Assembly (NCBI GenBank): GCA_025454795.1
Contig: JALONT010000033.1
Location: forward strand, 1 to 58,192
Direction: 5' to 3'
Length of the DNA stretch: 58,192 nucleotides
DNA from: Bacteroidales bacterium
GTDB lineage: Bacteria > Bacteroidota > Bacteroidia > Bacteroidales > VadinHA17
Below, one piece after another: positions 4,780-36,309 of the stretch. The position numbers were made by a program, and so were the translations under genes. The notes beneath the pieces are model-generated. The model searched no databases. It saw only the letters and a list, made by a program, of their open reading frames with translations, and was not told the origin of the DNA. The first letter of the stretch is position 1. Every line of letters starts with the position of its first letter.

Positions 4780-4829
4780 TTTGTATTATGAACTAATGTT
4801 CATTATCTTTGTAGTGAACTATTGTTCAT
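4780..4829 (+). promoter_or_regulatory. Promoter with two DUF134-type operator palindromes
   Basis: A Bacteroidota promoter is visible: -33 TTTG at 4780-4783, a 20-bp spacer, and -7 TATCTTTG at 4804-4811. A perfect palindrome ATGAAC-TAAT-GTTCAT (4788-4803) fills the spacer. A second copy, GTGAAC-TATT-GTTCAT (4814-4829), lies at the likely transcription start, six bases before the DUF134 start codon. This is the layout of a self-repressed promoter. Assignment to the DUF134 product is inference from the same palindrome lying in front of the two other DUF134 genes. Confidence 0.8.
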
Positions 4830-4834
4830 AAAAT

Positions 4835-5419
4835 ATGTCGCCACGACCATTCAGATTACGGAAAATAAGCAACCCTCCGGTGATTTCGGGTTTTAAGCCT
4901 TACGGTAATAAAAAAAACGGAGGGAAAACAGAAAGTGTATTTCTGCATCTGGAAGAATATGAAGCATTGCGCTTATGTGATTACGAAATGCTTAATCATC
5001 ATCAGGCAGCTATTTTTATGGCTGTATCAAGACCCACCCTTACACGAATTTATTCAAAAGCAAGGCAAAAAGTAGCAGAAGCGCTCGTTCAGGGGAGACA
5101 GATTATTATCGAAGGAGGCAAGATATATTTTGACAGCGAATGGTATTCCTGCAAATCTTGCAGCTGCTATTTTAACAATCCTGAGAAACAGGAAGAGATA
5201 AAAGAATGTCCGTTATGCAGGAGCAGCAATTTTATGAATTATGAACCAGATCATGAGGAAACTGAAGATACTTTGACAAGATGTATGGATATCTGTATTT
5301 GTCCCTCATGTGGTTTTGAAACACCTCACCGTTTTGGTTGCCCCTGCAAGGATGAAATATGCCCTGAATGTGGAAACAATATGGTCAGAAAAGGAGCACC
5401 GCTTATAAGGAATCTTTAA
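4835..5419 (+). CDS. DUF134 (UPF0251) DNA-binding regulator with extended zinc ribbons
   Basis: This is a predicted transcription factor of the DUF134 family, whose regulatory targets are poorly known. The N-terminus has the family pattern PRPFRLRKI...P...GFKPYG and EEYEALRLCDYE, then a sigma-like helix-turn-helix (AAIFMAVSRPTLTRIYSKAR, about 58-77). At 194 residues it is longer than the two other family members here (150 and 134). The extra C-terminal part has four Cys groups, CKSCSC, CPLC, CxDICICPSC and CPCKDEICPEC, enough for two or more metal ribbons. It is the first gene of the redox cluster and sits behind the double operator, so self-regulation is likely. Confidence 0.88.
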   Translation: MSPRPFRLRKISNPPVISGFKPYGNKKNGGKTESVFLHLEEYEALRLCDYEMLNHHQAAIFMAVSRPTLTRIYSKARQKVAEALVQGRQIIIEGGKIYFDSEWYSCKSCSCYFNNPEKQEEIKECPLCRSSNFMNYEPDHEETEDTLTRCMDICICPSCGFETPHRFGCPCKDEICPECGNNMVRKGAPLIRNL

Positions 5420-5431
5420 TAAACAAATGAT

Positions 5432-5749
5432 ATGAAAGTAGCTATTACAAGTAATGGGAACAGCCTTGAAAGTAAATTGGATCAGCGTTTTGGCCGTTGC
5501 GGGTACTTTATTATTTACGATACTGAGACTCAAGGGTTAGAATTTTTACCGAATCCCAATAAAGATGTACAAGAGGGTGCAGGACCTGCATCCGTTCAAC
5601 TTGTTGCATCACGCAATGTTCAGAAGATTATTTCGGGAGAATTCGGAATAAAGATCAAGTCGTTGCTTGACAGTCTGAAAATCCAGATGATTGTTCTGAA
5701 ACAACCTGAAAAAAGTATAAAAGAAATTATTGATATGTTGAACAATTAA
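5432..5749 (+). CDS. NifX/NifB-type FeMo-cofactor-binding domain protein (COG1433)
   Basis: A stand-alone dinitrogenase iron-molybdenum cofactor domain (105 residues). It starts MKVAITSNG and has the family features SKLDQRFGRCGYFIIYD (about 15-30), NPNKD and a GAG-x-x-S/A region. Relatives include NifX and NafY, which carry FeMo-co, and the orange protein ORP of Desulfovibrio, which binds a Mo-Cu-S cluster. No nitrogenase gene is present, so a nitrogen-fixation role is not supported. It lies 12 bp after the DUF134 gene and is probably in the same transcript. The Cys in RFGRCGYF is a candidate ligand. Confidence 0.88.
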   Translation: MKVAITSNGNSLESKLDQRFGRCGYFIIYDTETQGLEFLPNPNKDVQEGAGPASVQLVASRNVQKIISGEFGIKIKSLLDSLKIQMIVLKQPEKSIKEIIDMLNN

Positions 5750-5763
5750 AAATGGAGGTAATT

Positions 5764-6009
5764 ATGCCAGGATTTGATCAAACAGGCCCGCAGGGAAAAG
5801 GTTCCCTGACAGGCCGCAGAATGGGTCGTTGTACAAATTATGGGAGGAATTTGAAAAAAGCAGAAAGCGCTACTTCCTCTGAACAAAATGATAATTCACC
5901 TGAAAACTTTCAGGGAAGAGGTTTTGGCTTTGGCTTAAGAAGAGTTGGATTAGGGAGAGGCAGAAGGAACGATACGGGACGACAAAATCGATTAAGGGGT
6001 AATTTTTAA
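5764..6009 (+). CDS. DUF5320-like Gly/Arg-rich small protein
   Basis: An 81-residue protein beginning MPGFDQTGPQGKGSLTGRRM, the pattern of the small Gly-rich DUF5320 proteins often found beside NifX and MinD/Mrp genes. The C-terminus is low-complexity RGxGFGxGxR. The start is set by the ribosome site: GGAGG at 5754-5758 lies six bases before the ATG at 5764, while an in-frame ATG at 5752 overlaps that site and is rejected. The gap to the NifX gene is 14 bp. The molecular function is unknown. A second family member is encoded at 13704-14033. Confidence 0.75.
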   Translation: MPGFDQTGPQGKGSLTGRRMGRCTNYGRNLKKAESATSSEQNDNSPENFQGRGFGFGLRRVGLGRGRRNDTGRQNRLRGNF

Positions 6010-6070
6010 AAATACGCGAAATGCTATGCCCCTTTTATAATAAGTTATTCATCAATTAATATTTATTTTT

Positions 6071-6409
6071 ATGAAAAAAAGAATTGCTATTCCGTTAGAA
6101 GACGGAATCTTGTGCTCTCATTTTGGTCATTGTCAGCAGTTTGCAATCATTGATGGTGATGACAGCACCATTTCAGCAGAGCAGCTTGTTACACCTCCGC
6201 CTCATGAACCAGGTTTACTTCCGGGATGGCTTGCTGAAAAAGGAGTCACAGATGTCATTGCCGGAGGAATGGGACAGAGAGCGATAAATCTCTTCAATCA
6301 GCAGAAAATCAATGTATTTGTTGGTGCACCGATAAAAATGCCCAAAGATCTCGCAAAAGACCTGCTGAACAATACTCTGATTGCGGGAGCAAATTATTGT
6401 GACCATTAG
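6071..6409 (+). CDS. NifX/ORP-type domain protein (COG1433), HFGHC class
   Basis: A 112-residue protein of the dinitrogenase iron-molybdenum cofactor family. It has MKKRIAIPLEDGILCSHFGH, then CQQFAIID, PPPHEPGLLPGWLAE and VIAGGMGQRA. The HFGHC and PPHEPG...P-WL motifs mark a branch distinct from the 5432 protein, typically linked to Mrp ATPases and in some Desulfovibrio fused to Mrp. His and Cys in HFGHC are candidate metal ligands. It stands 61 bp after the DUF5320-like gene and 12 bp before the DUF89 gene. Confidence 0.88.
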   Translation: MKKRIAIPLEDGILCSHFGHCQQFAIIDGDDSTISAEQLVTPPPHEPGLLPGWLAEKGVTDVIAGGMGQRAINLFNQQKINVFVGAPIKMPKDLAKDLLNNTLIAGANYCDH

Positions 6410-6421
6410 TTATTATTGAAA

Positions 6422-7291
6422 ATGTTATCAGATCACCGCTGTTTTTTCTGTTTTGCAAAAGCATTTGAGAAATTACTTCAGAAAGAAAATATTCCGAATG
6501 AATCAAAAAATAGTTTCACGCTTGAGATGATTCGTTTATATATAGACAGATGGGATGAATTCAACACTCCTGATTTTTCAAGGGAACTTCATGCTCTGTT
6601 AAGAAGTTATACTCATAATCCTGATCCATACAAGAAGGTAAAGAGGGAAAATAATGATCAGGCAATCAGTTTGGTTCCGGAATTAAAAAAATTGATTAAA
6701 CAATCAGGAGATCCTTTTGAAACTGCTTTACGCCTGGCAATTGCAGGAAATATAATCGATTACGCAGCAAGTGACAATTTTGATCTCAAATCAACAATTG
6801 ACAGAGTTCTTACTTCTGAATTTGCCATCGATCATTCAATGCATTTAAAGGTAGCAATAGAAAACGCAGGGACTGTTTTATATCTGGGAGATAACGCCGG
6901 TGAGATTATTTTTGATAAACTTTTTATAGAGACTATTAACCACCCCGACTTGATCTTTGTGGTAAGAGGCGCACCAGTTATTAACGATGCAACAATGGAT
7001 GATGCTGAATATACCGGTATAAACAAAGTAGCTAAAGTAATATCGAACGGTTATGATGCGCCCTCAACCATAGTGAATAAATCCAGTACTGAATTTCAGT
7101 ATTATTTTAATAAAGCCGACCTTATCATTTCCAAGGGACAGGGCAACCTTGAAGGGCTGCTTCATTTAAATGATAAAAGGATCTTTTTCCTGCTGATGGT
7201 CAAATGCAATGTAATGGCAGAATTTCTTAAAGTTGAAAAAGACAGTTTTGTAGTATATAATGCCTCTATCCTGAATAGCGTAACAAACTAA
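6422..7291 (+). CDS. DUF89 family protein (damage-control phosphatase/ARMT1-like)
   Basis: A metal-dependent phosphatase-type protein of the DUF89 family, members of which hydrolyse damaged sugar phosphates. Seen: N-terminal RCFFCFAKAFEKLL with a C-x-x-C pair, YLGDNAGEIIFDKLF (Asp-Asn metal motif), VRGAPVINDATMDDA, and SKGQGNLEGL. These are the conserved DUF89 subfamily I blocks and the length fits (about 290). I take the ATG at 6422; a TTG at 6416 is also in frame. No clear Shine-Dalgarno site is seen. Its place next to NifX genes is a recurrent context in anaerobes, but the substrate cannot be named. Confidence 0.85.
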   Translation: MLSDHRCFFCFAKAFEKLLQKENIPNESKNSFTLEMIRLYIDRWDEFNTPDFSRELHALLRSYTHNPDPYKKVKRENNDQAISLVPELKKLIKQSGDPFETALRLAIAGNIIDYAASDNFDLKSTIDRVLTSEFAIDHSMHLKVAIENAGTVLYLGDNAGEIIFDKLFIETINHPDLIFVVRGAPVINDATMDDAEYTGINKVAKVISNGYDAPSTIVNKSSTEFQYYFNKADLIISKGQGNLEGLLHLNDKRIFFLLMVKCNVMAEFLKVEKDSFVVYNASILNSVTN

Positions 7292-7307
7292 TCTATAATA
7301 CTATAAA

Positions 7308-8252
7308 ATGATCAGCTTCGGCCCCGTTCCATCAAGAAGGCTTGGAAAAAGTCTCGGGATCAATAATATTATTTCTCCAAAAGTCTGCTCCTATAGTTGC
7401 ATTTATTGCCAGGTAGGAAAGACAATAAAGAAAAGCTCTGTAAGAGAAAGCTTTTACAAACCTGATGTTATTTATGAAAAGGTTGTGAAGCATATAGATC
7501 AACTCGGCAGCGAAAATTATCCTGATTATCTGACTTTTGTTTCAAATGGAGAACCCACACTTGACATAAACCTGGGAAGAAGTATCAGATTGTTGAAAAA
7601 AACCGGAATTCCGGTGGCAGTAATTACTAATGCTTCATTACTGGAGTATGAATCAATAAGAGAAGACCTCTCCCCTGCTGACTGGGTGTCGCTTAAAATG
7701 GATGCTGGTGATAGCGATAAATGGCAAAAAGTAAACCGTCCCGCTCCCGGGCTCGATTTCGAAAAACTGACCGAAAGCAAGAAACTGTTTGCTTCTGAAT
7801 TTAGAGGGATATTATGCACCGAAACAATGCTGGTTGACAGGATAAACGACTTCCCGGAGAATCTTACCAATGTGGCACAACTTATTAAGAATTTAAACCC
7901 GGCTAAAGCATACTTGTCAATACCGATACGGCCCCCTGCCGGATTTTCTGTAAAAGCGCCAGATCCGGAAAAGTTGAACCAGGCATGGCAGATATTCAGC
8001 GATATGAATATTAAAACGGAATTTCTTACGGGCTTCGAAGGCACCAATGCCGGTTTTACAGGCAATATATATGAAGACATATTAAATATTACAGCCGTGC
8101 ATCCGTTAAGGGAAGATTCAATGATTAAACTTTTGGAGAATGATAATGCCGGATATGAAGTGGTTGAATCTCTTATCAGGCAAAGATTGATAAGGGTCTC
8201 AGTGTACGACGGGAAAAAATTTTACTTGAGGGAATATCATCTTGTTATTTAA
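7308..8252 (+). CDS. Radical SAM protein (FGPVPSRRLG family)
   Basis: A radical SAM enzyme of 314 residues. It opens with FGPVPSRRLGKSLGINNI and carries the [4Fe-4S]-SAM motif C27-x3-C31-x2-C34 (CSYSCIYC). TFVSNGEPTLD is the second conserved block and VITNAS the third. A C-terminal helix-turn-helix-like segment (residues about 250-310, PLREDSMIKLLE...VVESLIRQRLI) is common in this family. The family is widespread in anaerobes and methanogens, without an agreed reaction. It begins 16 bp after the DUF89 gene and ends four bases before the deformylase gene, so it is part of the operon. Confidence 0.9.
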   Translation: MISFGPVPSRRLGKSLGINNIISPKVCSYSCIYCQVGKTIKKSSVRESFYKPDVIYEKVVKHIDQLGSENYPDYLTFVSNGEPTLDINLGRSIRLLKKTGIPVAVITNASLLEYESIREDLSPADWVSLKMDAGDSDKWQKVNRPAPGLDFEKLTESKKLFASEFRGILCTETMLVDRINDFPENLTNVAQLIKNLNPAKAYLSIPIRPPAGFSVKAPDPEKLNQAWQIFSDMNIKTEFLTGFEGTNAGFTGNIYEDILNITAVHPLREDSMIKLLENDNAGYEVVESLIRQRLIRVSVYDGKKFYLREYHLVI

Positions 8253-8255
8253 TTA

Positions 8256-8798
8256 ATGGTTGCTCCTGTTATTTTATATGGTTCTCCTGTTCTCAGGAAA
8301 TCTTCGGCAGACATTACCGGAGAAGACAATATAACGGGAATTTCTGAAACGCTTTTCAGTACTCTTAAAAATGCTAAAGGTATCGGATTGGCAGGTCCAC
8401 AGGTAAGTTTATTAAAAAGAGCTTTTGTGATCGACACTTCGCCGCTTTCCGAAGATGATATTACGATTGAAAAATATGAAAAGGTTTTTATAAATCCCAT
8501 GATACTTGAAAGAAACAATGATGATGTAATGTTCAGGGAGGGATGCCTTAGTATTCCTGATATCTTCGAAGAAGTCAAACGTCCATCTAAGATTTGGGTA
8601 AGATATAATGACCTTTCTTTTAATATAGTTGAAGAAGAAATGACAGGCATTGTTGCACGGATTTTTCAGCACGAATATGATCATCTTGAAGGAATACTGT
8701 TCATAGACAAAATAAACCCTGTAAAGAGAAAAATACTCTCGCCAAAACTTAATAAAATAAAGATATTATCACGCGGTTCAGTTAATTATTATGGGTAA
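8256..8798 (+). CDS. def: Peptide deformylase
   Basis: This enzyme removes the formyl group from the N-terminal Met of new proteins. All three family motifs are present: GIGLAGPQV (42-50), EGCLSIP with metal ligand C97, and QHEYDHLEG with H139, E140 and H143. The 180 residues are normal for a bacterial enzyme, so it should be active. Its position inside a redox operon, eight bases overlapping the HdrC-like gene, is unusual for def and suggests either an accessory copy or a housekeeping gene captured by the cluster. Whether a second copy exists cannot be seen here. Confidence 0.95.
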   Translation: MVAPVILYGSPVLRKSSADITGEDNITGISETLFSTLKNAKGIGLAGPQVSLLKRAFVIDTSPLSEDDITIEKYEKVFINPMILERNNDDVMFREGCLSIPDIFEEVKRPSKIWVRYNDLSFNIVEEEMTGIVARIFQHEYDHLEGILFIDKINPVKRKILSPKLNKIKILSRGSVNYYG

Positions 8799-9477
8799 GA
8801 CTTTATATGAACGGCTGGAAGAGGATGTGCGTTTCAGTGAGGGACTGAAATCATGCATGAACTGTGGTGTCTGCACTGCAATATGCCCTGCAGCAGAAGT
8901 AAGCGATTATGACCCGCGCATGGTTGTAACTGTTGTTCAGCTAAGAGATGAAGCAGGAGTTGAGAAACTTCTTAAAAGCGATACCATATGGAGGTGCGGT
9001 GAATGTCTTTCGTGCAAAACAAGATGTCCTCGGGGGAATGTTCCGGGTTATATTATACAGGCATTAAGAGCTTTATCAATTGAAACTGGTTTGTTCATAG
9101 AGAGTGAACAGGGCAGGAAGCAACTGGCCATTAAACGCACCGTGGGCGACCATATCCTGAAATACGGTTATTGCGTGTATATCGACGAAGTTGATAATGA
9201 TATGTACCCCGAGCAGGGGCCGATATGGGAATGGCTCAGGAAAAACAGGGAGTCAATGCTGGAGCGCCTCGGGACAAGTTATAAAAAAGATCAGTCCGGA
9301 ACACTCCGCAATACTTCGAAGGAATCGCTTAATGACCTTAAAAGAATATTTGACGAAACCGGGGGAACCCAACGATTTGAAAAAATTGAAAAATATTCTT
9401 CTGAAAAAGCAAAAGAACTAGGCATCGGGTTTAAAGAAGGGAAGGATGATTATTTCAATCTTCTTTATAATGAATGA
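8791..9477 (+). CDS. HdrC-like 4Fe-4S protein (heterodisulfide reductase subunit C-like)
   Basis: An electron-transfer protein with two [4Fe-4S] sites: C22-x2-C25-x2-C28-x3-C32-P and C69-x2-C72-x2-C75-x3-C79-P, in the arrangement of HdrC (followed by GNVPGYIIQALR). The C-terminal 110 residues (from about 120) are charged and not part of canonical HdrC, which is often under 200 residues. The gene overlaps the deformylase stop by eight bases and is followed after 33 bp by an HdrB-like gene, so the two products probably form a complex. No HdrA flavoprotein is present in the window, so the electron donor is unknown. Confidence 0.9.
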   Translation: MGKTLYERLEEDVRFSEGLKSCMNCGVCTAICPAAEVSDYDPRMVVTVVQLRDEAGVEKLLKSDTIWRCGECLSCKTRCPRGNVPGYIIQALRALSIETGLFIESEQGRKQLAIKRTVGDHILKYGYCVYIDEVDNDMYPEQGPIWEWLRKNRESMLERLGTSYKKDQSGTLRNTSKESLNDLKRIFDETGGTQRFEKIEKYSSEKAKELGIGFKEGKDDYFNLLYNE

Positions 9478-9510
9478 TTAATGCATCTGCTGACTGAAAA
9501 GAAAAATTAA

Positions 9511-10578
9511 ATGAATATAAGAAAAAACGAAATATGGGCCTCTTACCAGAAAGAAATAGCTGATGATCATTATTATTTTGCCAGAAGCTGTATAAGGCAG
9601 AATTTCTTTCCTGCTGCCGAAAATCTTTATATCGATATTCTTCGCGATGTCCTTAAAAAAGATATTTATGACGATGCCAGGCAAACTACCTGCACCGGTA
9701 TTGCCTATCATTCGGGACTTATTCCTCTTGAGACAACCATGACGGTTATTGCACGGCAATTTGCACTGATGACTGAAGCCGGGTATGAAAATTTTGTTGT
9801 CTCATGTGTCACATCTTTTGGACTCTATGTTGAAACTCTTGAGACATGGAAGCATTTCCCAGTAACAGAACAAAAAACACGCGATGCATTAAAACGTGCC
9901 ACGGGTATGACTTTTTTAATACCGAAAAACCTTGTCCATGCCAGCGATGTCATTTATAAATTCCGTAAAGAAATAGCTGAAAAGATAAATCTGAGGCTGA
10001 TAAATAAAAGTACCGGAGAGCCTCTTAAAATTGTCGATCATATCGGGTGTCATTATGCCAAGATTTTTCCTCAAAAAGGAATTGGCGGCGCTGAATATTC
10101 TTATGTGCTGGCAGGTTTAATTGACGAATGGGGAGGCCTGCAGGTTGATTACCCTGAACGCCGTCATTGCTGCGGATTCGGGTTCAGACAATACCTCCTC
10201 AAATCAAACAGAGGATATTCCGTATCAAATTCAAAAAAGAAATTCGATTCAATGCAGCCATATAAACCCGATCTCATAATTGCCAACTGTCCGGGCTGTA
10301 CCTTTTTTCTCGACCGCTGGCAATTTGTAATAGCCGAGATGGAAGGTAAAACTTATGGTGAGAATGGTTATGGTATTCCTGTATTGACTTATGAAGAACT
10401 TGCAGGACTTCTTCTGGGTTACAATCCGTGGGACATAGGTTTGCAAACTCACCAGGTGTCAGTCGAACCTTTGCTTGGAAAGCTTGGAATCCGATATGAT
10501 CCGGAGCAAAAATATAAGGGAATTGATGGCAAAGATATCGGAAGACCTGAACATCCACAGGTACTGAAATGTATTTAA
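9511..10578 (+). CDS. HdrB-like protein with CCG cysteine-rich domains
   Basis: This resembles subunit B of heterodisulfide reductase, the family that holds noncubane Fe-S clusters in CCG domains. The second CCG module is clear: CHYAKIFP near residues 178-185, HCCGFGFRQY near 221-230, and NCPGCTFFLDRW near 258-269. The first module is partial: CTGIAYHSG near 60 and SCVTSFGLY near 106, without a full CCG. This asymmetry suggests one cluster site instead of two. It pairs with the HdrC-like gene upstream. The enzyme may use a disulfide or act only as an electron relay; the sequence does not decide. Confidence 0.88.
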   Translation: MNIRKNEIWASYQKEIADDHYYFARSCIRQNFFPAAENLYIDILRDVLKKDIYDDARQTTCTGIAYHSGLIPLETTMTVIARQFALMTEAGYENFVVSCVTSFGLYVETLETWKHFPVTEQKTRDALKRATGMTFLIPKNLVHASDVIYKFRKEIAEKINLRLINKSTGEPLKIVDHIGCHYAKIFPQKGIGGAEYSYVLAGLIDEWGGLQVDYPERRHCCGFGFRQYLLKSNRGYSVSNSKKKFDSMQPYKPDLIIANCPGCTFFLDRWQFVIAEMEGKTYGENGYGIPVLTYEELAGLLLGYNPWDIGLQTHQVSVEPLLGKLGIRYDPEQKYKGIDGKDIGRPEHPQVLKCI

Positions 10579-10586
10579 AAGATCTA

Positions 10587-10694
10587 ATGATGAATTCGCT
10601 TCATGTAGTTTACAGAATATCCTATTCAGATACTGACCAGATGGGATTCATGCACCATTCAAATTATTTCAAATACACTGAAAGAACTAATTGA
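10587..10694 (+). pseudogene. N-terminal remnant of a YbgC/4HBT-type thioesterase
   Basis: Thirty-five codons read MMNSLHVVYRISYSDTDQMG then FMHHSNYFKYTERTN. The stretch RISYSDTDQMGFMHHSNYFKY matches the N-terminal block of hot-dog acyl-CoA thioesterases (YbgC type: Y-x-D-T-D-x-x-G-x-x-H-x-x-x-Y). The reading then stops, and no continuation of the roughly 130-residue fold is seen before the CGGC gene at 10709. I infer a truncated relic left in the operon by a deletion. The conserved Asp is intact, so decay may be recent. Confidence 0.7.
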
Positions 10695-10708
10695 TAAATA
10701 ATTGAATT

Positions 10709-11152
10709 ATGGAGAAAATTAAAATAGGAATTATCATCTGTGACAGGTACAATACGTGTACCGGTGGAAAATGCTTCAGATCGGCAACTAACCGCGAGGG
10801 GGCCTTCTCAATCTATAAAGGCAAAGATCTTGAGGTTGCAGGTTTTACCACCTGCGGCGGATGCCCCGGCGGGAATATAGAATATGCTCCTGAAGAAATG
10901 AAGAAGAACGGGGTGACCCATATTCATTTTGCAACAGGTTTTCTGGTTGGGTATCCTCCATGCCCATATATGGGATATTTTAAAAAGTTTATTGAAGAGA
11001 AATACGGGATGAAGGTAATTCCGGGAACCCATCCGGTACCGCAAAAATATTACCTGACACATATGAAGCTTGATACATGGAAAGATGAATTTATGATGGA
11101 TTCGGTGGAAAATATCCTGGGTGATGAAAAAACACGGTTAAAATATGATTAA
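10709..11152 (+). CDS. CGGC domain-containing protein
   Basis: A 147-residue protein of the CGGC family, predicted to bind metal through conserved cysteines. It opens with IGIIICDRYNTCTGGKCFRS, then has the name motif TTCGGCPGGNI (about 48-58), HFATGFLVGYPPCPY and VIPGTHPVP. About ten residues before the stop the sequence is ordinary. The family has no proven reaction. It stands between the Hdr-like pair and the first MinD ATPase, six to nine bases before the latter, which places it in the same transcript. Confidence 0.88.
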   Translation: MEKIKIGIIICDRYNTCTGGKCFRSATNREGAFSIYKGKDLEVAGFTTCGGCPGGNIEYAPEEMKKNGVTHIHFATGFLVGYPPCPYMGYFKKFIEEKYGMKVIPGTHPVPQKYYLTHMKLDTWKDEFMMDSVENILGDEKTRLKYD

Positions 11153-11161
11153 GAGGACATG

Positions 11162-12037
11162 ATGAAGATCGCGATAGCCAGCGGTAAAGGTGGTACGGGC
11201 AAAACTTTTATCGCGACAAATATTTTCTATACCCTGTTGCAGAATAACTACAGGGCTATGCTCGTTGACTGCGATGCCGAAGCTCCAAATTCAATTGCAT
11301 TCTTTGAAACAAAACAGATAAAGGAATCTGAAGTTACACAACTAGTACCGGTAATTAACAAAGATACCTGCACTTTTTGCGGTAAATGCCATGAGTATTG
11401 TAATTATAATGCAATATTCATTCTGCCTCCAATGAAGGTTATTCAGGTTATTGAAGATCTTTGTCATGGTTGCGGGGCTTGCAGTGTTGCCTGTAAGGTT
11501 GGCGCCATCTCAGAGAAACCGGTTTCGCTGGGACAGGTTGCTTTATATTCAACTGACGGGTTGCCTGGACTTATTGAAGCGAGAATGAATATTGGGGTAA
11601 TGTCGCCGGTTCCGGTAATTAAAGCTGCAATAAGACAAGTTGACAACAAAGCTGATATTATCATAATGGATGCTCCTCCCGGAACATCATGTCCGTTTAT
11701 TCAAACAGTTGCATCAGCTGATTATGTTATTCTTGTGACAGAGCCAACACCGTTCGGACTCAGTGATCTTAAACAGAGTGTTGAAACTCTGAAAACAATA
11801 AATAAACCCTGCGGAGTAATAATTAACAGGTCAGGATTGGGGAATAACGAAGTGCAGGAGTATCTGAGTAATGAAGATATTTCTCTTCTGCTGGAGATTC
11901 CCTTTAAGAAGGAGATCGCAGAGTTATACTCCAGGGGAAAAATAGTCTCGGAAAACGATTCTTTCTTTGCCTGCCAGCTTTCGGAAGTAATCAGGGACAT
12001 AATTGAACAACATGGAAATAGCCATAATCAGCGGTAA
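11162..12037 (+). CDS. MinD-superfamily P-loop ATPase with inserted ferredoxin domain (COG1149), copy 1
   Basis: A deviant-Walker ATPase: SGKGGTGKT at the N-terminus, VDCDAEAPN, and MDAPPGTSCPF. Between about residues 60 and 115 two [4Fe-4S] motifs are inserted (CTFCGKCHEYC and CHGCGACSVACK). Two such ATPases in tandem are a hallmark of the orange-protein (ORP) gene cluster of Desulfovibrio, where they bind ORP and an Mrp protein. The start is ATG 11159 or 11162; I prefer the second because AGAGGAC lies at a normal distance. The end overlaps copy 2 by 26 bases. Confidence 0.92.
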   Translation: MKIAIASGKGGTGKTFIATNIFYTLLQNNYRAMLVDCDAEAPNSIAFFETKQIKESEVTQLVPVINKDTCTFCGKCHEYCNYNAIFILPPMKVIQVIEDLCHGCGACSVACKVGAISEKPVSLGQVALYSTDGLPGLIEARMNIGVMSPVPVIKAAIRQVDNKADIIIMDAPPGTSCPFIQTVASADYVILVTEPTPFGLSDLKQSVETLKTINKPCGVIINRSGLGNNEVQEYLSNEDISLLLEIPFKKEIAELYSRGKIVSENDSFFACQLSEVIRDIIEQHGNSHNQR

Positions 12038-12881
12038 GGGCGGCACAGGGAAATCGAGTTTAAGCGCTGCATTTGCAACATTAAATAGTGAAGTTGTTAT
12101 TGCCGACTGTGACGTTGATGCAGCAAACCTTTATTTGTTGTTTAATCCGACACATGAAGAAGAAATAGACTATATCTCAGGTCATAAAGCAGTTATAAAT
12201 TATGATTTATGCTCCAATTGTGGTATCTGTCAAAGTTATTGCCGGTTTGATGCCATATCGATTATAAACAGCAGTGTGGTCATATCAGAGATATCATGTG
12301 ATGGTTGCTTCCTGTGTTCACGTATATGTCCTGAAAACGCCATAAAAATGGTTCAGAATGATAAAAGCAGGATGTATTCAGGATCATTCCGTAATGGCAA
12401 AATGGTATATGGCAGGCTCGCACCCGGTGAGGAGAACTCAGGAAAGCTGGTGAATATGGTTCGTGAAAAAGCCAAACAGGTTAGTAGTGAAAACGGTCTG
12501 GAAACCATTATACTCGACGGTCCTCCGGGAATTGGTTGCCCTGTAATTTCAACCATTACCGGAGTAGATAAAGTTGTAATAGTTACTGAACCGACTATTT
12601 CAGGCCTGCACGATATGAAAAGGACAGTTGAGATAGTTCAGAAATTCAGTCTGCCTGCATTTGTTATTATAAATAAATATGATCTGAATTCTGATATGAG
12701 TTATCAGATTGAAGATTGGTGCAAACAGAATCGTATAACTATTGCAGGACTGCTGCCGTTTGACAAACAAATGGTCGAAGCGATGATAATGGGAAAAAGC
12801 ATAACAGAATTTAATCCGGATCTTGATATCAGTAAAAAAATAAAAACAATATGGAACAAAATCCTAAATCAAAAGAAATGA
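12012..12881 (+). CDS. MinD-superfamily P-loop ATPase with inserted ferredoxin domain (COG1149), copy 2
   Basis: The second member of the pair. It begins MEIAIISGKGGTGKSSLSAA, with ADCDVDAANL, two ferredoxin motifs (CSNCGICQSYCRFDAI and CDGCFLCSRICPENAI, about 68-115), then LDGPPGIGCPV. I choose the ATG at 12012 over a TTG at 12003. The gene overlaps the preceding ATPase by 26 bases and the following Mrp gene by 31, a sign of coupled translation and fixed stoichiometry. By analogy with ORP ATPases it probably couples nucleotide state to Fe-S or metal-cluster transfer. Confidence 0.92.
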   Translation: MEIAIISGKGGTGKSSLSAAFATLNSEVVIADCDVDAANLYLLFNPTHEEEIDYISGHKAVINYDLCSNCGICQSYCRFDAISIINSSVVISEISCDGCFLCSRICPENAIKMVQNDKSRMYSGSFRNGKMVYGRLAPGEENSGKLVNMVREKAKQVSSENGLETIILDGPPGIGCPVISTITGVDKVVIVTEPTISGLHDMKRTVEIVQKFSLPAFVIINKYDLNSDMSYQIEDWCKQNRITIAGLLPFDKQMVEAMIMGKSITEFNPDLDISKKIKTIWNKILNQKK

Positions 12882-13687
12882 GTGATCTGTTTAAAAAGAT
12901 CCCCATGGAAGGTGTTAAGCACATTATTGTGGTTGCCTCTGGCAAAGGCGGTGTTGGAAAATCCACAGTGGCAGCCAATCTGGCTATCGCATTAGCGCGA
13001 AACGGACTTAACACTGCACTGGTAGATGCGGATATTTTCGGACCTTCAATTCCGAAAATGTTCGGAATAGAAGATGCAAAGCCCGATGTTACTGCTTTCG
13101 GAGATAAAGAAATGATCTTCCCGATAGTAAAATACGGAGTTAAAATCATTTCGATAGGCTTTTTTATCGATCGTAGTCAATCACTTATCTGGAGGGGACC
13201 AATGGCTGGGAAAGCTGTTACCCAGCTTTTTGAAGACACACAGTGGGGAGAAATTGATTACATGATCATTGATTTTCCTCCGGGAACAAGCGATATTCAA
13301 CTTACAACTGTCCAGAAACTTAACCTGGCAGGGGCAATAATCGTAACAACACCTCAGGAAATATCCCTGAACGATGCAAGAAAGGCAACATCAATGTTCA
13401 AAAATCCTGATCTTAATGTCCCTATACTTGGAATTATAGAAAATATGTCATGGTTTACACCGGAAAAACACCCTGATGAGACTTACTACATTTTTGGCAA
13501 GGGAGGAGGACTTAAACTGGCAAAAGAGTTTGATACAGTTTTGCTTGGACAGATACCACTTGTATTGGAGGTAGGTGAAGCTGCTGAGCAGGGACTAAGT
13601 GTATTCAGTCAGAATAACAAAACTGTTGTCACTGCATTTGAGCATATAACAGAAATGATAATTTCAAGAACTGAGGTCAAATCCTGA
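12851..13687 (+). CDS. mrp: Mrp/NBP35-type Fe-S carrier ATPase
   Basis: A 278-residue P-loop ATPase of the Mrp/ApbC/NBP35 family, which bind and hand on Fe-S clusters. It has VASGKGGVGKST (about 27-38), DADIFGPSIPKMFG, WRGPMAGKAVTQL and DFPPGTSDIQLT. The usual C-P-x-C cluster ligand pair before YIFG is absent: the segment reads ENMSWFTPEKHPDETYYIFG. Many Bacteroidota Mrp proteins share this loss, so cluster binding may use other residues or a partner. It overlaps the second MinD gene and ends 16 bp from a convergent DUF5320-like gene. Confidence 0.93.
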   Translation: MEQNPKSKEMSDLFKKIPMEGVKHIIVVASGKGGVGKSTVAANLAIALARNGLNTALVDADIFGPSIPKMFGIEDAKPDVTAFGDKEMIFPIVKYGVKIISIGFFIDRSQSLIWRGPMAGKAVTQLFEDTQWGEIDYMIIDFPPGTSDIQLTTVQKLNLAGAIIVTTPQEISLNDARKATSMFKNPDLNVPILGIIENMSWFTPEKHPDETYYIFGKGGGLKLAKEFDTVLLGQIPLVLEVGEAAEQGLSVFSQNNKTVVTAFEHITEMIISRTEVKS

Positions 13688-13703
13688 AGTACTTAAACGA
13701 CTG

Positions 13704-14033
13704 TCACTCCTTCTCTTTCTCCAGTTCTCCCAGCCGTTTTTCAATATCGGCCTGAGAACGTTTAAGCTCATCTGCCTGGGATTTAAGAAGTTTTATTTCA
13801 TCTTCTTTACTAATGGCAGTTGTCCACGGTGAAGCCTGCATACCCCATCCTCTTCCAAAACCCAAACCCCTGCCAATACCTCTTCCACGACCTCTTCCAA
13901 ATCCGATTCCTCTTCCCATCCCTCCGACTGCACCCTTCATATAACCGGGTGAATCAAATCCGTAACAATAACCAAATGCTCTTCCGGTTCCGGGACCTTG
14001 TCCCAGTGGTCCGGTACGATCTCCTGCTGGCAT
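13704..14033 (-). CDS. DUF5320-like Gly/Arg-rich protein with coiled-coil tail
   Basis: A 109-residue protein starting MPAGDRTGPLGQGPGTGRAF, the defining block of DUF5320. The middle (about 35-65) is GxGRGxGFGRGRGRG low complexity. The C-terminal 40 residues (KEDEIKLLKSQADELKRSQA onward) form a charged heptad coiled coil, suggesting oligomers. It is convergent with mrp and has its own operator-bearing promoter. The family is a frequent companion of NifX/MinD clusters; the function is unknown. The 5764 protein is a shorter relative without the coiled coil. Confidence 0.85.
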   Translation of the reverse strand: MPAGDRTGPLGQGPGTGRAFGYCYGFDSPGYMKGAVGGMGRGIGFGRGRGRGIGRGLGFGRGWGMQASPWTTAISKEDEIKLLKSQADELKRSQADIEKRLGELEKEKE

Positions 14034-14089: not shown

Positions 14090-14285
14090 GTAACTTTCTT
14101 TGACATCCGAAGCTTCAGCGAAGGATGTAGCGAAGCCGGGTTGCTAGTTTATTTTGTAAAGATACAAATTAAAATGAACATATGTTCACTTTAACCAGCT
14201 TTTTTTTATTTGATGAAAAAAAAGGAAGTCTATGCCTATTCTGACTCCCATCTTATGACTTCGGACTTCGGACTTCGGTCTTCCA
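14090..14285. repeat. Intergenic repeats: hairpin and ACTTCGG tandem units
   Basis: Two repeat types flank the operator. ACATCC...GGATGT (about 14103-14128) encloses GAAGCTTCAGCGAA, like dispersed palindromic repeats in Bacteroidota. At about 14259-14283 the unit GACTTCG or GGACTTC is repeated three to four times; related sequence in the other orientation occurs at 54437-54465. Neither looks coding. Confidence 0.5.
14174..14189 (-). promoter_or_regulatory. DUF134-type operator before the DUF5320-like gene
   Basis: ATGAAC-ATAT-GTTCAC is a near-perfect copy of the palindrome seen before the DUF134 genes. It lies 141 bases upstream of the minus-strand DUF5320-like start, next to a -7-like TATCTTTA read on the minus strand (14164-14157). 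The site covers the expected -33 region. Confidence 0.65.
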
Positions 14286-14292
14286 ACCTTTC

Positions 14293-15072
14293 TCAGAATT
14301 TTAAGGTGTCCCCCGTTTTAATCTGTCTGATCCCGAAACTGTCATAAAATGCAGCCAGTGCAGGAAGTTCAGTACAATGTGACGGCAATACATGTTTCAC
14401 TTTGTTTTCTTTAATATACATGATGGTCTCCTTAGTCTGAATATCAATTTCTTTCAGGTGAAAACCTCCCATTACCCCGTAAATCTTTTTTATTCCTGTG
14501 GTTTTCTTTGCATGCTCCAGAGTATTCACTATTCCTGCATGACCACAACCCGTTACTACAAATGAGCCTTCAGGCATAATCAGTACCAGTGCACTGTCAT
14601 CTATGACAAGATCAGGTGTGCCGTCCTCAAAAATAAAAGTTGTGTTTTTCGATTCAAATTCGGTCAGTCTGGGGATCTCTCCCAGAAAGAAAATCTTGTC
14701 CGACAATTTATATGGCTTCGAAGAAGTTATCAAATTAAACTTTTCTGTCAATTCCTTTTTTGAATTTTTCAGTCCTATATATGAATTATCAGATTTCCTG
14801 TACCTTTTGATAAAGCAACCCGGATGACATACAAGGCTGCCTGCGGAAAGAAGATCTAAACCGTCTCCGTGATCAAAATGTCCATGGCTAAGGACGATCA
14901 TGTCGATATTTTCCATACTGACATTCATTATTCCGGCATTTTTTAGAAACATATCGCTCTGTCCGGTATCAAAAAGGATTCTTTTTCCGTCAAATTCAAT
15001 CAGATACGATAAGCCATGCTCTGCCAGTGTAAAAGCCCCTGCATGATTTTCTGTAAGCACTGAGATCTGCAT
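14293..15072 (-). CDS. MBL-fold metallohydrolase
   Basis: A metallo-beta-lactamase-fold protein of 259 residues with the di-metal motif SHGHFDHGDG (H63, H65, D67, H68). It also has TGCGHAGIVNTLEHAKK (third metal His), GGFHL and the late SHCTELPA. This set matches the branch related to dihydropterin-linked hydrolases (COG1237), common in anaerobes and often beside NifX/MinD genes. The substrate is unknown. It is transcribed away from the DUF4405 gene, and the space between the two contains an operator palindrome. Confidence 0.88.
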   Translation of the reverse strand: MQISVLTENHAGAFTLAEHGLSYLIEFDGKRILFDTGQSDMFLKNAGIMNVSMENIDMIVLSHGHFDHGDGLDLLSAGSLVCHPGCFIKRYRKSDNSYIGLKNSKKELTEKFNLITSSKPYKLSDKIFFLGEIPRLTEFESKNTTFIFEDGTPDLVIDDSALVLIMPEGSFVVTGCGHAGIVNTLEHAKKTTGIKKIYGVMGGFHLKEIDIQTKETIMYIKENKVKHVLPSHCTELPALAAFYDSFGIRQIKTGDTLKF

Positions 15073-15085: not shown

Positions 15086-15126
15086 CAAAATTAGTCTAAA
15101 TAATTTTCAAATGAACAATTGTTCAT
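15086..15126. promoter_or_regulatory. Divergent promoter region with DUF134-type operator
   Basis: The perfect palindrome ATGAAC-AATT-GTTCAT occupies 15111-15126, midway between the divergent MBL and DUF4405 genes. On the minus strand a -7 element TAATTTTG is at 15093-15086, and the palindrome overlaps the place of its -33 box (ATTG, spacer 22). A single site could control both directions. Confidence 0.7.
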
Positions 15127-25544: not shown

Positions 25545-25576
25545 CAAATTTAACATATAAATGACCATATGTTCAT
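25545..25576. promoter_or_regulatory. DUF134-type operator between DUF134 and ferritin-like genes
   Basis: ATGACC-ATAT-GTTCAT at 25561-25576 is the palindrome with one mismatch. On the minus strand a -7 element TAAATTTG is at 25552-25545 in front of the DUF134 gene, and the palindrome covers the area just before its -33 position. The ferritin-like gene starts 156 bp away on the other side. Confidence 0.7.
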
Positions 25577-25731: not shown

Positions 25732-26232
25732 ATGGGACAAAAAGGAAGATCAATAGTTAAAATGGATGTTGACAAACTAATCAACCTTCTAAACAAAGCA
25801 TTATCGGATGAATGGCTTGCCTACTATCAATACTGGATTGGAGCTAAAGTAGTAAAAGGTCCGATGAAGGATGCGGTAATATCGGAGCTTAACCTCCATG
25901 CAACTGAAGAACTAAGCCACGCTGAACTTTTAGCGACAAGAATCATACAGCTGGGAGGAACTCCTGTTTTATCACCAGAAGAATGGCTTAAGATTACCGG
26001 TTGCGGGTACGATGCTCCCGCTGATCAATATGTTGAAAAAATTCTTGATCAAAACATAAAAGGGGAACAATGCGCCATAAATTATTACAGCGGATTACTT
26101 GATAAAACAAGGGAGGGAGACCCTGTTACCTATAATATTATCCTGACAATTCTTTCACAGGAAGTTGAGCATGAAGAAGATCTTTCAGCTTTAAAGGAAG
26201 ACCTTGATTTAATGCTTGAGAGAAGAAGGTAA
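25732..26232 (+). CDS. Ferritin-like DPSL (thioferritin-type) protein
   Basis: A four-helix ferritin-fold protein of 166 residues with carboxylate/His iron ligands E27, E60-x2-H63, E112 and E144-x2-H147. Two cysteines, C91 (in CGYDAP) and C114 (in GEQCAINYY), sit next to the metal site; this Cys pair marks the Dps-like thioferritins, which use peroxide to oxidise and store iron. An alternative start at 25762 (MDVDKL) would remove ten residues. Its neighbours are a DUF134 regulator and a peroxiredoxin, which fits protection from peroxide. Confidence 0.83.
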   Translation: MGQKGRSIVKMDVDKLINLLNKALSDEWLAYYQYWIGAKVVKGPMKDAVISELNLHATEELSHAELLATRIIQLGGTPVLSPEEWLKITGCGYDAPADQYVEKILDQNIKGEQCAINYYSGLLDKTREGDPVTYNIILTILSQEVEHEEDLSALKEDLDLMLERRR

Positions 26233-30268: not shown

Positions 30269-30290
30269 TACAACCTCATATATTAAAAAA

Positions 30291-31394: not shown

Positions 31395-31443
31395 AAGCCA
31401 GGTAAATGATGAGTGATATGTTATTGCTTAAACCCTTATATCT

Positions 31444-33164: not shown

Positions 33165-33255
33165 CCTTCATCCATTAAGTTATAGCTATTTCTTACTTTA
33201 ATTATAATATTCATCTGGATTTGGGTTACACAATGCCATTAAAATAAATTATTAT

Positions 33256-33936: not shown

Positions 33937-34017
33937 CAACCCACTTAAGGGGCAGTTATATACAATCTAATGTAATCTGTACATTATCAATGAAATACTA
34001 AGCATATAACAGTTAAT

Positions 34018-34470: not shown

Positions 34471-34536
34471 GAGGTAATAATAAAGAAAAAACTTACGCAT
34501 ATTGCATGGCTGTTAAATAAAATGTCTTTAAAGTAG

Positions 34537-35427
34537 ATGAGCAAGAGAAAAAGAATAGATAAGAAGAGTTCAAGAACTGCAGGTTATACTTGCATGTGCA
34601 GGGCATCATCATACCTTGAAAGCAATATTTATTACAGATCTGATGATTATATTGCCGTTAAACTATTGCCTCACCTTATTAAAATTTTACTAAAGTTTAA
34701 AATTATCAATTTAAAAGGAAGAATATCTCCCACTGGAATATATCCATATGTCATAGCAAGGACAAAATATATTGACACCATTTTTGAAGATTCGATAAAA
34801 AAGGGATTTGAACAGACAGTAATTATGGGTGCGGGATTTGATTCAAGGGCAATAAGATTTTATTCTTCAGGTAGGAGTAATATAAGAGTCTATGAAATAG
34901 ATACAAACCATACACAAAATGCAAAAACCAGACAGTTGATAAATCGAGGAATTAATATACCTGATAATAATATTTATATACCTGTTGATTTTAATAAAGA
35001 GAATATAAGGTCCAGATTAGATGAAAACAAATTCAAATCATCTAAAAAGACCCTCTTTATACTTGAAGGTTTCATAATGTATCTATCTCATGATGCAATT
35101 GATGAAACATTTAAGATTATTTATGATTATTCTGCTCCCGGCAGCTTAATAGTATTTGATTACGTTTATGCATCTGTTCTGAGAAAGGAGTTGAAATATT
35201 ATGGAGAAGGCGCAATATATCAAAGGGTAACTAAAGATAATGAGAAATGGACTTTTGGAATTGAAGAAGGGGGAATTGAAAGTTTCCTTAAATCTTACAA
35301 CTTCAGCCTTCTTGAACATCTTGATTCAAAAGTAATTGAAAAGAAATATTTTACAAATGAATCAGGAAATCTGATAACAAAGGTCAATGGAACCCATTGT
35401 ATTGTATTAGCTAAAAGAGATGATTAA
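34537..35427 (+). CDS. LCMT-type SAM-dependent methyltransferase
   Basis: A 296-residue protein of the leucine carboxyl methyltransferase-like group (TIGR00027/COG3315). Early block SSRTAGYTCMCRASSYLE matches the T-A-x-x-x-x-x-R-A start of the group; MGAGFDSRAIRF (about 92-103) is the SAM motif, then VYEIDTN, LFILEGFIMYLS. Bacterial members include polyketide O-methyltransferases. The stop overlaps a 31-codon reading frame leading to the next methyltransferase. Confidence 0.87.
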   Translation: MSKRKRIDKKSSRTAGYTCMCRASSYLESNIYYRSDDYIAVKLLPHLIKILLKFKIINLKGRISPTGIYPYVIARTKYIDTIFEDSIKKGFEQTVIMGAGFDSRAIRFYSSGRSNIRVYEIDTNHTQNAKTRQLINRGINIPDNNIYIPVDFNKENIRSRLDENKFKSSKKTLFILEGFIMYLSHDAIDETFKIIYDYSAPGSLIVFDYVYASVLRKELKYYGEGAIYQRVTKDNEKWTFGIEEGGIESFLKSYNFSLLEHLDSKVIEKKYFTNESGNLITKVNGTHCIVLAKRDD

Positions 35428-35515
35428 TAAGGTACATGACATTGCAGCATGTATAGATAAGTTAAACGTAAATGATAATTTTAAAGTGAGTGCACAAAAA
35501 AAATATCTCCAATGA
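35420..35515 (+). CDS. Possible 31-residue ORF coupled to two methyltransferase genes
   Basis: The ATG at 35420 overlaps the last codons of the LCMT-type gene, and the TGA at 35513-35515 overlaps the ATG of the next gene (ATGA at 35512). The frame reads MINKVHDIAACIDKLNVNDN then FKVSAQKKYLQ. The double overlap is unlikely to be accidental and suggests translation, if only to couple the two enzymes. It has no match I recognise. Confidence 0.4.
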   Translation: MINKVHDIAACIDKLNVNDNFKVSAQKKYLQ

Positions 35516-36198
35516 AACTGAAAGATTCTGTAAAAATCACCCTGAAAAATAGCATCTATTATGTTATTGATGATAATGGAAAAATCAAAAAATTCAAGCC
35601 TTGGCTCGGCGATATTTTTTCTTTCGTTTACGATCGCATTATGGAAAAATCTATATTCCCAAAAAAATTTAAGGGAAGCTTTGCAAAGCACTTTGATATA
35701 TTGAAAGAGGAATATCAGAATATTCATGGTATGAATATAATTGAAATAGGTACAGGAAGCGGATCTGCAGCATACTTATTAAATAATGATAATTATTATA
35801 CAGGCATAGATATCAGCAGTGGACTTCTATTTCAGGCAGTCAAGAAATTTAAAAACAATAATTTTCAGGAGGTTGAATTCTTTGTTTCAGATGCAAGTGA
35901 TTTACCGTTTAGTAACGAGTTCTTTGATGTGGCTATATGTGATTTGTCATTAAACTTTATTGGAAACATAGAAACCTTTGTTAAAGAAATAAAAAGAGTA
36001 ATGAAGCAAGGTTCGAAATTTTTCTGCAGTGTCCCTGTTCCTGAAAGAAAAGAGCCAAAAGTTAAGATACATGGAAGCTTATACTCTGAAAATGAATTGA
36101 AAACCTGTTTTGAGAAGTTTGGTTTTAGTTTCGTACCAAAGCCTACTGAAAATGGTGCTTTGCTATATTTTGTAGCCAAACTTAATACTGACAACTAA
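35512..36198 (+). CDS. Class I SAM-dependent methyltransferase
   Basis: A 228-residue methyltransferase with NIIEIGTGSGSAAYLL (about 78-93), TGIDISSGLLFQAVKKF, FFVSDASDLPFSNEFFDVAI and VKEIKRVMKQGSKFFCSV. The N-terminal 70 residues are not conserved motifs and may bind the substrate. It differs from the 33256 protein and is not a simple duplicate. Last of the four methyltransferase-like genes. Confidence 0.88.
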   Translation: MKLKDSVKITLKNSIYYVIDDNGKIKKFKPWLGDIFSFVYDRIMEKSIFPKKFKGSFAKHFDILKEEYQNIHGMNIIEIGTGSGSAAYLLNNDNYYTGIDISSGLLFQAVKKFKNNNFQEVEFFVSDASDLPFSNEFFDVAICDLSLNFIGNIETFVKEIKRVMKQGSKFFCSVPVPERKEPKVKIHGSLYSENELKTCFEKFGFSFVPKPTENGALLYFVAKLNTDN

Positions 36199-36277
36199 AA
36201 AAAATAATAACCGCAGGTACCTGAACTTCATATTGTAAGTATTCCCCTCATTGTATTCAATATTAAACCAATTTTTA

Positions 36278-36309
36278 TTTGCATTTTGAACGTAGGTTCA
36301 TTATCTTTG
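36278..36309 (+). promoter_or_regulatory. Promoter with DUF134-type operator
   Basis: -33 TTTG (36278-36281), 20-bp spacer, -7 TATCTTTG (36302-36309). The palindrome TTGAAC-GTAG-GTTCAT (36286-36301) fills the spacer exactly as in the 4780 promoter. The -33 and -7 boxes are identical in the two promoters, although the spacer bases outside the palindrome differ. Confidence 0.8.

What the first reader, a model, noticed from the sequence alone, without database searches (positions are those of the whole stretch)
4780..36309. Six copies of a 16-bp palindrome mark a DUF134 regulon
ATGAAC-N4-GTTCAT (at most two mismatches) is found at 4788, 4814, 14174, 15111, 25561 and 36286. All three DUF134 genes have it directly upstream, and the two other promoter regions that carry it belong to the redox cluster. 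At 4788 and 36286 it fills the spacer between TTTG and TATCTTTG, both with 20-bp spacing. At 4814 it covers the likely transcription start. This is direct evidence for a DNA site of this little-studied regulator family and defines a regulon: NifX/MinD/Mrp/Hdr genes, an MBL/DUF4405 divergent pair, ferritin-like DPSL, and a Cys-rich membrane protein.
Basis: partly seen in the sequence, partly recalled or inferred. Interest (0 to 1): 0.92.

Follow-up and report, generated by a model that had tools for sequence, protein, structure and literature searches.

The report
DNA code of DUF134 repressor family
A short mirror-image DNA word in front of a set of iron-sulfur genes is very probably the switch bound by a regulator family of unknown function (DUF134), and its letters change in step with the regulator's DNA-reading residues in bacteria of several phyla.

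Summary
The six sites exist, each with at most one mismatch: 6 of the 17 such sites in the 3.29-Mb genome; 10 of the other 11 lie inside long reading frames. The genome's only three DUF134 genes are here and carry the site. In the same bacterial family, unbiased enumeration of inverted repeats upstream of DUF134 genes ranks TGAAC-N4-GTTCA first (48 of 59 regions; coding control 0 of 59), and 51 of 72 sites abut TAnnTTTG. Other DUF134 subfamilies carry different palindromes in one frame, TTAT-nnn-C-ATAT-G-nnn-ATAA, whose free bases follow recognition-helix residues 64, 67, 68 (Arg68: G3 in 87 of 88 half-sites; others: T3 in 24 of 24). A rule noted beforehand held in new genomes: base 5 78/78, base 4 70/78, base 3 66/78 half-sites. 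DUF134 is thus most likely a dimeric, autoregulating repressor of an ORP-like iron-sulfur module. Not shown: binding, sign of regulation, signal. Against: 87 of 229 regions lack a site, including 28 of 28 in one subfamily (f18) and 38 of 52 MPN-type proteins; tree-based independence tests were underpowered.

The parts
4788..4803 (+). Operator 1 (ATGAACTAATGTTCAT), in the 20-bp spacer between TTTG (4780-4783) and TATCTTTG (4804-4811)
4814..4829 (+). Operator 2 (one mismatch), 26 bp downstream of operator 1, over the likely transcription start; a second site (up to 3 of 10 mismatches) at this 26-bp spacing occurs in 21 of 112 primary sites
4835..5419 (+). DUF134 protein 1 (194 aa), Cys-rich C-terminal half; helix VSRPTLTR
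5432..13687 (+). Same-strand gene run behind DUF134-1: NifX-like x2, DUF5320, ARMT1-like, radical SAM, peptide deformylase, Fer4 (HdrC-like), CCG (HdrB-like), CGGC, two MinD-Fer4 ATPases, Mrp/NBP35; that it is one transcript is not shown
13704..14033 (-). DUF5320 gene; genes of this kind also stand behind the site in L074, L076 (Pfam) and L302, L305 (my reading)
14174..14189 (+). Operator 3 (one mismatch), upstream of the minus-strand DUF5320 gene, overlapping its likely -33 region (inferred)
14293..15072 (-). MBL-fold metallo-hydrolase
15111..15126 (+). Operator 4 (exact) between the divergent MBL and DUF4405 genes; followed by TAATTTTA on the + strand; a site before similar genes in L302 (both) and L318 (MBL side seen)
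15177..15968 (+). DUF4405 membrane protein, first of a run with DUF169 (15958) and phosphatidylserine decarboxylase (16631)
25054..25506 (-). DUF134 protein 2 (150 aa), helix ISRPTFTR, CxxC..CxxC tail
25561..25576 (+). Operator 5 (one mismatch), between divergent DUF134-2 and the ferritin-like gene
25732..26232 (+). Ferritin-like (DPS-like) protein
36286..36301 (+). Operator 6 (one mismatch) in the 20-bp spacer between TTTG (36278-36281) and TATCTTTG (36302-36309)
36325..36588 (+). Small Cys-containing membrane protein behind operator 6 (start codon and membrane nature inferred)
36554..36958 (+). DUF134 protein 3 (134 aa), helix ISRPTFTR

Best explanation
The palindrome is the operator of DUF134 (PF02001), a helix-turn-helix regulator that binds as a dimer, one recognition helix per half-site. 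In the window three DUF134 paralogues with the same DNA-reading residues (S-R-P-T-x-T-R) share one operator, ATGAAC-N4-GTTCAT. By occupying the spacer between -33 and -7, or the -33 element, they most likely repress their own promoters and an ORP-like iron-sulfur gene module (NifX, MinD-Fer4, Mrp, DUF5320, DUF4405/MBL, ferritin-like). Residues 64, 67 and 68 of the helix select bases 4, 5 and 3 of the half-site, and Arg63 probably reads the G opposite C6. Shown by sequence: site, promoter position, conservation, covariation. Inferred: direct binding, repression. Speculative: that a metal or Fe-S cluster on the Cys-rich tail (or on a NifX domain, which is fused to DUF134 in three Bacillota and one Treponema plasmid protein) releases the DNA.
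For: Clustering: 6 of 17 genome sites in the window; 10 of the other 11 lie in long ORFs. All 3 DUF134 genes of the genome carry it. Of 88 above-cut-off DUF134 hits in 98 genomes (own genome included), 87 had upstream DNA: 61 have a site with <=1 mismatch, 72 with <=2. Unbiased enumeration ranks TGAAC-N4 first, 48/59; coding control 0/59. Exact sites 93 versus 10 for the reversed pattern in 98 genomes; in 44 of 63 genomes with DUF134 versus 9 of 35 without, p = 4e-5. 51 of 72 sites abut TAnnTTTG. Blind frame scan: 142 of 229 regions versus 8 of 229 reversed. Residue-base agreement in 56 clusters: R68 to G3 87/88, non-R68 to T3 24/24, P64 to A4 65/66, T67 to A5 62/68, G67 to G5 13/14; over all 142 sites R68 to G3 is 251/256. 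New genomes, rule noted first: 42 of 47 loci with site versus 1 of 47 reversed; b5 78/78, b4 70/78, b3 66/78 half-sites. 13 plasmid loci (Bacillota, Spirochaetota, Gammaproteobacteria, Bacteroidota) and one viral contig: 14 of 14 have a frame site. Where Arg63 is Pro (SP[SA]TFSR; L362-364, 3 of 3) the C6 is lost. PDB: both sequence hits are DeoR; its R39, which I align with R68, contacts G4 of ATTGAAC in a 3.7-A structure (passages of PMC11229326).
Against: No binding or expression data. 87 of 229 regions lack a frame site: 28 of 28 f18 regions of the SRQTFGR/SRPTFGR kind, and 38 of 52 MPN-type proteins, which have the same SRPTFTR helix as the window's. A prediction of ATGRGCN4GCYCAT for f18 was not confirmed: 40 of 45 f18 genomes with DUF134 were given, 25 sites in 21 of 40 genomes versus 6 reversed, but none stands before a DUF134 gene by coordinates, and 18 of 21 looked at lie in stop-free frames of 450 nt or more. 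Residue changes are few on the tree (5, 8 and 10), so the independent-pair sign tests were underpowered. Q67, S67, S64, Q64 and A64 do not fix one base. 9 of 35 genomes without a DUF134 above cut-off still have an exact site (most are drafts in many contigs).
Confidence: 0.87

Rival explanations
1. The sites belong to another dimeric regulator (TetR-, MarR- or LexA-like; GAAC-N4-GTTC is the Gram-positive LexA box, recalled) that controls the same genes, and DUF134 is only one of its targets.
For: The site sits upstream of several genes besides DUF134, 9 of 35 genomes without a detected DUF134 have an exact site, and the recalled LexA box has the same core.
Against: LexA DNA-binding domain not found in the genome. 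Sites change with the DUF134 recognition helix in different phyla. Exact sites are commoner in genomes with DUF134. TetR and MarR genes were not searched for genome-wide.
Confidence: 0.06
2. DUF134 binds the site but acts as an activator, or as a sigma- or anti-sigma-like factor, rather than as a repressor; its HTH resembles sigma-70 region 4.
For: Pfam and Foldseek also give sigma-70 region 4 similarity; in 7 of 72 sites, among them 25561 on the DUF134-2 side, TAnnTTTG starts 6-9 bp further on, so the site overlaps the -33 region.
Against: 51 of 72 sites lie directly against -7 and a second site covers +1 in 21 of 112, positions expected to block RNA polymerase.
Confidence: 0.12
3. The palindromes are chance or structural features (e.g. 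AT-rich promoter hairpins) unrelated to a protein.
For: At two mismatches the window count (8) is only marginally above chance (5 of 100 shuffles reach it).
Against:: strong excess over reversed and coding controls, with a preferred place in the promoter.
Confidence: 0.01

Closest known systems
B. subtilis DeoR (SorC/DeoR subfamily) DNA-binding domain, PDB 7bhy and 8r7y
   Same: Closest solved relative of the HTH by sequence (E 1.7e-4; Foldseek TMt 0.66-0.71 over 39-46 columns, E about 0.1). Helix ISRPTVSRL against ISRPTFTRL; operator half ATTGAAC against ATGAAC; R39 contacts the G. That R39 is the second Arg of this helix is inferred from a 5-residue offset in the PDB chain.
   Different: DUF134 has no sugar-phosphate-binding domain; it has a conserved N-terminal stretch, a Cys-rich tail or a NifX domain; its operator is a 20-bp palindrome with a 4-bp centre rather than DeoR's 39-bp composite operator.
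Sigma-70 region 4
   Same: HTH similarity.
   Different: No other sigma region was hit in the three proteins, and the sites are palindromes at more than one promoter position.
ORP (orange protein) complex cluster of Desulfovibrio vulgaris
   Same: Twin ferredoxin-bearing MinD ATPases, Mrp and NifX-like proteins; Orp3/Orp4 and Orp8 from passages of PMC6345978, Orp9 as Mrp recalled; window.
   Different: The Desulfovibrio cluster is described as controlled from a sigma54-dependent promoter; here the likely regulator is DUF134 with TTTG/TAnnTTTG promoters.

Membership tests
DUF134 (PF02001) | Profile match over the curated cut-off | tested here: met
   83.5, 85.1 and 69.4 bits against 27; only three in the genome
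Autoregulated HTH repressor | Palindromic site overlapping its own promoter | tested here: met
   not in the f18 and most MPN-type members
Autoregulated HTH repressor | Protein binds the site and lowers expression | not testable with these tools
   No experiment; covariation only
SorC/DeoR family | HTH of the DeoR type | tested here: inconclusive
   Hits, all weak (short domain, far below the DeoR cut-off)
SorC/DeoR family | C-terminal sugar-phosphate-binding (Rossmann-like) domain | tested here: not met
   Proteins of 134-194 aa, no such Pfam hit
LexA regulon | LexA protein encoded in the genome | tested here: not met
   PF01726 absent
ORP-type gene cluster | Twin MinD-Fer4 ATPases, Mrp, NifX-like protein together | tested here: met
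   window 5432-13687
ORP-type gene cluster | Purified multiprotein complex with the cognate metal cluster | not testable with these tools
   No experiment

The most novel reading that the evidence does not exclude
DUF134 is a bacterial (perhaps also archaeal) repressor family with a readable protein-DNA code: the operator of a DUF134 protein is TTAT-b3b4b5-C-ATAT-G-(complement)-ATAA, where b3, b4 and b5 are largely set by residues 68, 64 and 67 and C6 by Arg63. It controls the anaerobic NifX/MinD/Mrp iron-sulfur module in response to a metal or Fe-S signal carried by its Cys-rich tail or by a NifX domain.
Probability: 0.6. Interest if true: 0.85.

Novelty: new variant of a known kind. Interest (0 to 1): 0.8.

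Why it matters
DUF134 is still annotated only as a domain of unknown function. The library searches made here (listings, plus one passage each of two papers) showed no paper on its DNA site. The operator gives the family a probable function, a regulon (Fe-S, ORP-like module) and a simple residue-to-base rule that can be tested on other members, including those found on 189 plasmid records, mostly of Enterobacterales. It also offers a way into how anaerobes control NifX/MinD/Mrp proteins.

Tried and rejected
Two-mismatch counting in the window as evidence: too weak. ATGRGCN4GCYCAT for the main DUF134 of f18 (a family code of the tool; I take it to be green sulfur bacteria, not verified): not confirmed (40 of 45 f18 genomes with DUF134 given). 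My notebook gives 27 sites there; the recount is 25 against 6 reversed. Unbiased search in 28 f18 upstream regions: no common palindrome. LexA as binder: absent. Phage collection: no match. Viral contigs: no relative for A1 and A3, two hits for A2, of which only L294 is a plausible DUF134. Formal independent-pair tests: underpowered. Foldseek's top five (MCM N-terminal domains, TM about 0.2) were disregarded as spurious on a model with mean pLDDT 69. The one search hit PMC10434189 showed only DUF1349 in the passage printed, so it is a prefix match; others in that listing may be too. PMC5886521 names a UPF0251 gene only in a mutation table.

Rows dropped before counts: six sub-cut-off hits; one hit without upstream DNA (L123). 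In one search nine loci of genomes already seen, and three loci whose helix the pattern did not match (left out of the rule count, told separately); one partial new hit (G417) was never fetched. One search holds one gene twice (L352 and L374), so 46 distinct genes, 41 with site; without the duplicate b5 is 76/76, b4 70/76, b3 64/76. The rule allows two bases for S67, S64 and Q64, so part of b4 and b5 is lenient. The 12 base-3 misses are Arg68 proteins with A for G in one half; the 8 base-4 misses are SRATVGR (4, the duplicated gene) and one half each of L325, L330, L334, L358. The 229 regions contain some loci reached by two routes; clusters them.
Full report
Observation. The six sites are present at the stated coordinates, all with at most one mismatch to ATGAAC-N4-GTTCAT, two of them exact. 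With two mismatches allowed the count (8) barely exceeds shuffles (mean 3.8; 5 of 100 shuffles reach 8), so the strength lies in the one-mismatch level: 17 sites in 3,294,153 bases, of which 6 lie in this 58-kb contig, binomial P = 3e-7, to be relaxed by about 57-fold because the window was chosen for its sites. Of the 11 sites outside, 10 lie inside long open reading frames and one, on contig 9, is intergenic just before an ArsR-type gene.

Genes. The genome has exactly three DUF134 genes, all in this window and all with the site upstream. DUF134-1 (4835) starts a same-strand run of NifX-like, DUF5320, ARMT1-like, radical SAM, peptide deformylase, Fer4 and CCG (HdrC/HdrB-like), CGGC, two MinD-ferredoxin ATPases and Mrp. 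Operator 3 precedes a minus-strand DUF5320 gene; operator 4 lies between MBL and DUF4405; operator 5 between DUF134-2 and a ferritin-like gene; operator 6 precedes a small membrane protein and DUF134-3. Operators 1 and 6 fill the 20-bp spacer between TTTG and TATCTTTG.

Conservation near home. In 98 genomes of the same family (own genome included), 66 have a PF02001 match at E <= 0.001 and 63 one above the cut-off. Of 88 hits above cut-off, 87 had upstream DNA: 23 with an exact site within 350 bp, 38 with one mismatch, 11 with two, 3 with three, 12 with four. Enumerating all 1024 five-base half-sites with spacers 0-10 in 59 non-redundant 300-bp regions ranks TGAAC-N4-GTTCA first with 48 of 59; the same count in coding sequence is 0 of 59 and in reversed sequence 0. 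Of 72 sites with at most two mismatches, 51 are followed at once by TAnnTTTG, 7 at 6-9 bp, 14 have none in reach. A second site, up to 3 of 10 mismatches, lies 26 bp downstream in 21 of 112 primary sites, as at 4788/4814; the next commonest spacing, 30 bp, has 6. Exact sites number 93 against 10 for the reversed pattern; 44 of 63 genomes with DUF134 and 9 of 35 without have one.

Other subfamilies and phyla. In 129 further loci and in plasmid records of other phyla, DUF134 genes carry other palindromes in the same frame. SRATFGR: TTATGAGCATATGCTCATAA. SRQTFGR (L251): TTATGGGCATACGCCCATAA. SRGT[IY]QR: TTTTGTGCATATGCACAAAA. SRQT[FL]xN: TTATTAGC/TTATTGGC forms. Bacillota and Spirochaetota helices [SA]R[AT]T[VI]xx: TTATTGACATATGTCAATAA and near forms (perfect in Roseburia). 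SRST: ATGCAC in one or both halves in most. A blind scan that fixes only the frame (bases 3-5 free but symmetric) finds 142 of 229 regions against 8 of 229 reversed, and 14 of 14 of the plasmid and viral loci. In 56 clusters under 70% alike: residue 68 Arg to G3 in 87 of 88 half-sites, other residues to T3 in 24 of 24; residue 64 Pro to A4 65/66, Gly to T4 6/6, Thr to G4 10/10, Gln 7 G/4 A/1 T, Ala 6 A/4 G, Ser 6 A/2 C; residue 67 Thr to A5 62/68, Gly to G5 13/14, Ala to G5 6/6, Gln 11 G/7 A, Ser 4 A/2 G. Residues 64 and 68 vary together, so their shares for base 4 cannot be fully separated.

Prospective test. The rule was written down before new genomes were searched. Of 47 loci (46 distinct genes) 42 had a frame site against 1 reversed; the rule held for base 5 in 78 of 78, base 4 in 70 of 78 and base 3 in 66 of 78 half-sites, partly leniently where it allows two bases. 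The 12 base-3 misses are Arg68 proteins with A in place of G in one half. Three proteins with Pro in place of Arg63 (SP[SA]TFSR) have sites that lost C6, which suggests that Arg63 reads that base pair; this was seen afterwards, not predicted.

Structure. AlphaFold2 gives a confident HTH (helices 52-58 and 63-83), the recognition helix starting at Arg63, with a poorly modelled N-terminus. By sequence the only PDB relatives at E <= 0.1 are two DeoR entries; by fold, DeoR and sigma region 4 are the sensible matches, though none reaches E 0.001. In the full-length DeoR complex R39, which I align with Arg68, contacts G4 of ATTGAAC, the same G as base 3 here (passages of PMC11229326; 3.7 A; residue numbering inferred).

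Regulon. In relatives, exact sites away from DUF134 stand before ARMT1-like (L049, L303; L307 at 337 bp), DUF5320 (L074, L076, L302, L305), the MBL/DUF4405 pair (L302; MBL side in L318), NifX-MinD (L314, L315), peptide deformylase (L304), DUF169 (L310), a glyoxalase-DUF4405 run (L311) and others; these are largely the gene types of the window. Names are Pfam hits; those are my reading of printed proteins. Not every exact site is regulatory: 12 of the 18 family sites looked at fall in a predicted frame (two of them, L049 and L058, in short frames that I take to be spurious), and 6 of 21 sites (two of the own genome). The module resembles the ORP cluster of Desulfovibrio (passages of PMC6345978).

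Mechanism. Most likely: a DUF134 dimer occupies the palindrome, blocks RNA polymerase at its own and the module's promoters, and lets go on a signal. Shown: site, place, conservation, covariation. Inferred: binding and repression. Speculative: the signal. The Cys-rich tails here and the fusion of DUF134 to a NifX-like domain in three Bacillota and one Treponema plasmid protein (alignment; the domain name from the annotation and resemblance, not from a Pfam scan) suggest a metal or Fe-S cluster. The three paralogues have the same reading residues, so they should compete for the same six sites.

Limits. 87 of 229 regions lack a frame site, among them 28 of 28 f18 regions and 38 of 52 MPN-type proteins, although the latter have the window's SRPTFTR helix. 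The f18 prediction was not confirmed: 25 sites against 6 reversed in 40 genomes, none before a DUF134 gene and 18 of 21 looked at inside long stop-free frames. On the tree the residues changed only 5, 8 and 10 times and formal paired tests could not reach significance. Literature: the listings show no paper on DUF134 DNA binding; only open-licence papers are held, so this is not proof of novelty.

Noticed in passing
plasmid records, e.g. L287, L298 (Klebsiella), L297 (Morganella): A DUF134-NifX-PaaI thioesterase locus, in the two Klebsiella records followed by Dps, with SRQTLAN-type DUF134; DUF134 relatives occur on 189 plasmid records (114 conjugative), mostly of Enterobacterales; ligand and role unknown.
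   Followed up: partly
L288, L290, L291, L292: DUF134 fused to a C-terminal NifX-like domain in three Bacillota and one Treponema plasmid protein, hinting that NifX is the sensor module.
   Followed up: partly
L005 (G000 contig 9, 39955): The only intergenic site outside the window in this genome lies a few bases before an ArsR-family gene: possible link to another metal regulator.
   Followed up: partly
L362-L364: DUF134 with SPSTFSR or SPATFSR helix (Arg63 lost) and operators of the type TTATGAATATATATTCATAA.
   Followed up: partly
window 30204-33164: ZnuA-like and two ABC-3 genes (zinc-type uptake system) in the same window, without a palindrome of at most two mismatches.
   Followed up: no
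L214-L242 except L229 (f18 genomes): DUF134 paralogue (MKNxRAGRP-like, SRQTFGR or SRPTFGR) with no recognisable operator upstream in 28 of 28 loci, although a second paralogue (L261, L262) has one.
   Followed up: partly
G051 (L315), G047 (L049): Genomes with module genes behind an exact site but no DUF134 detected; a gap in the draft or another binder.
   Followed up: no
MPN-type DUF134 proteins, e.g. L134, L135, L153: 38 of 52 have no frame site upstream although their helix is SRPTFTR; they may be targets of other regulators.
   Followed up: no
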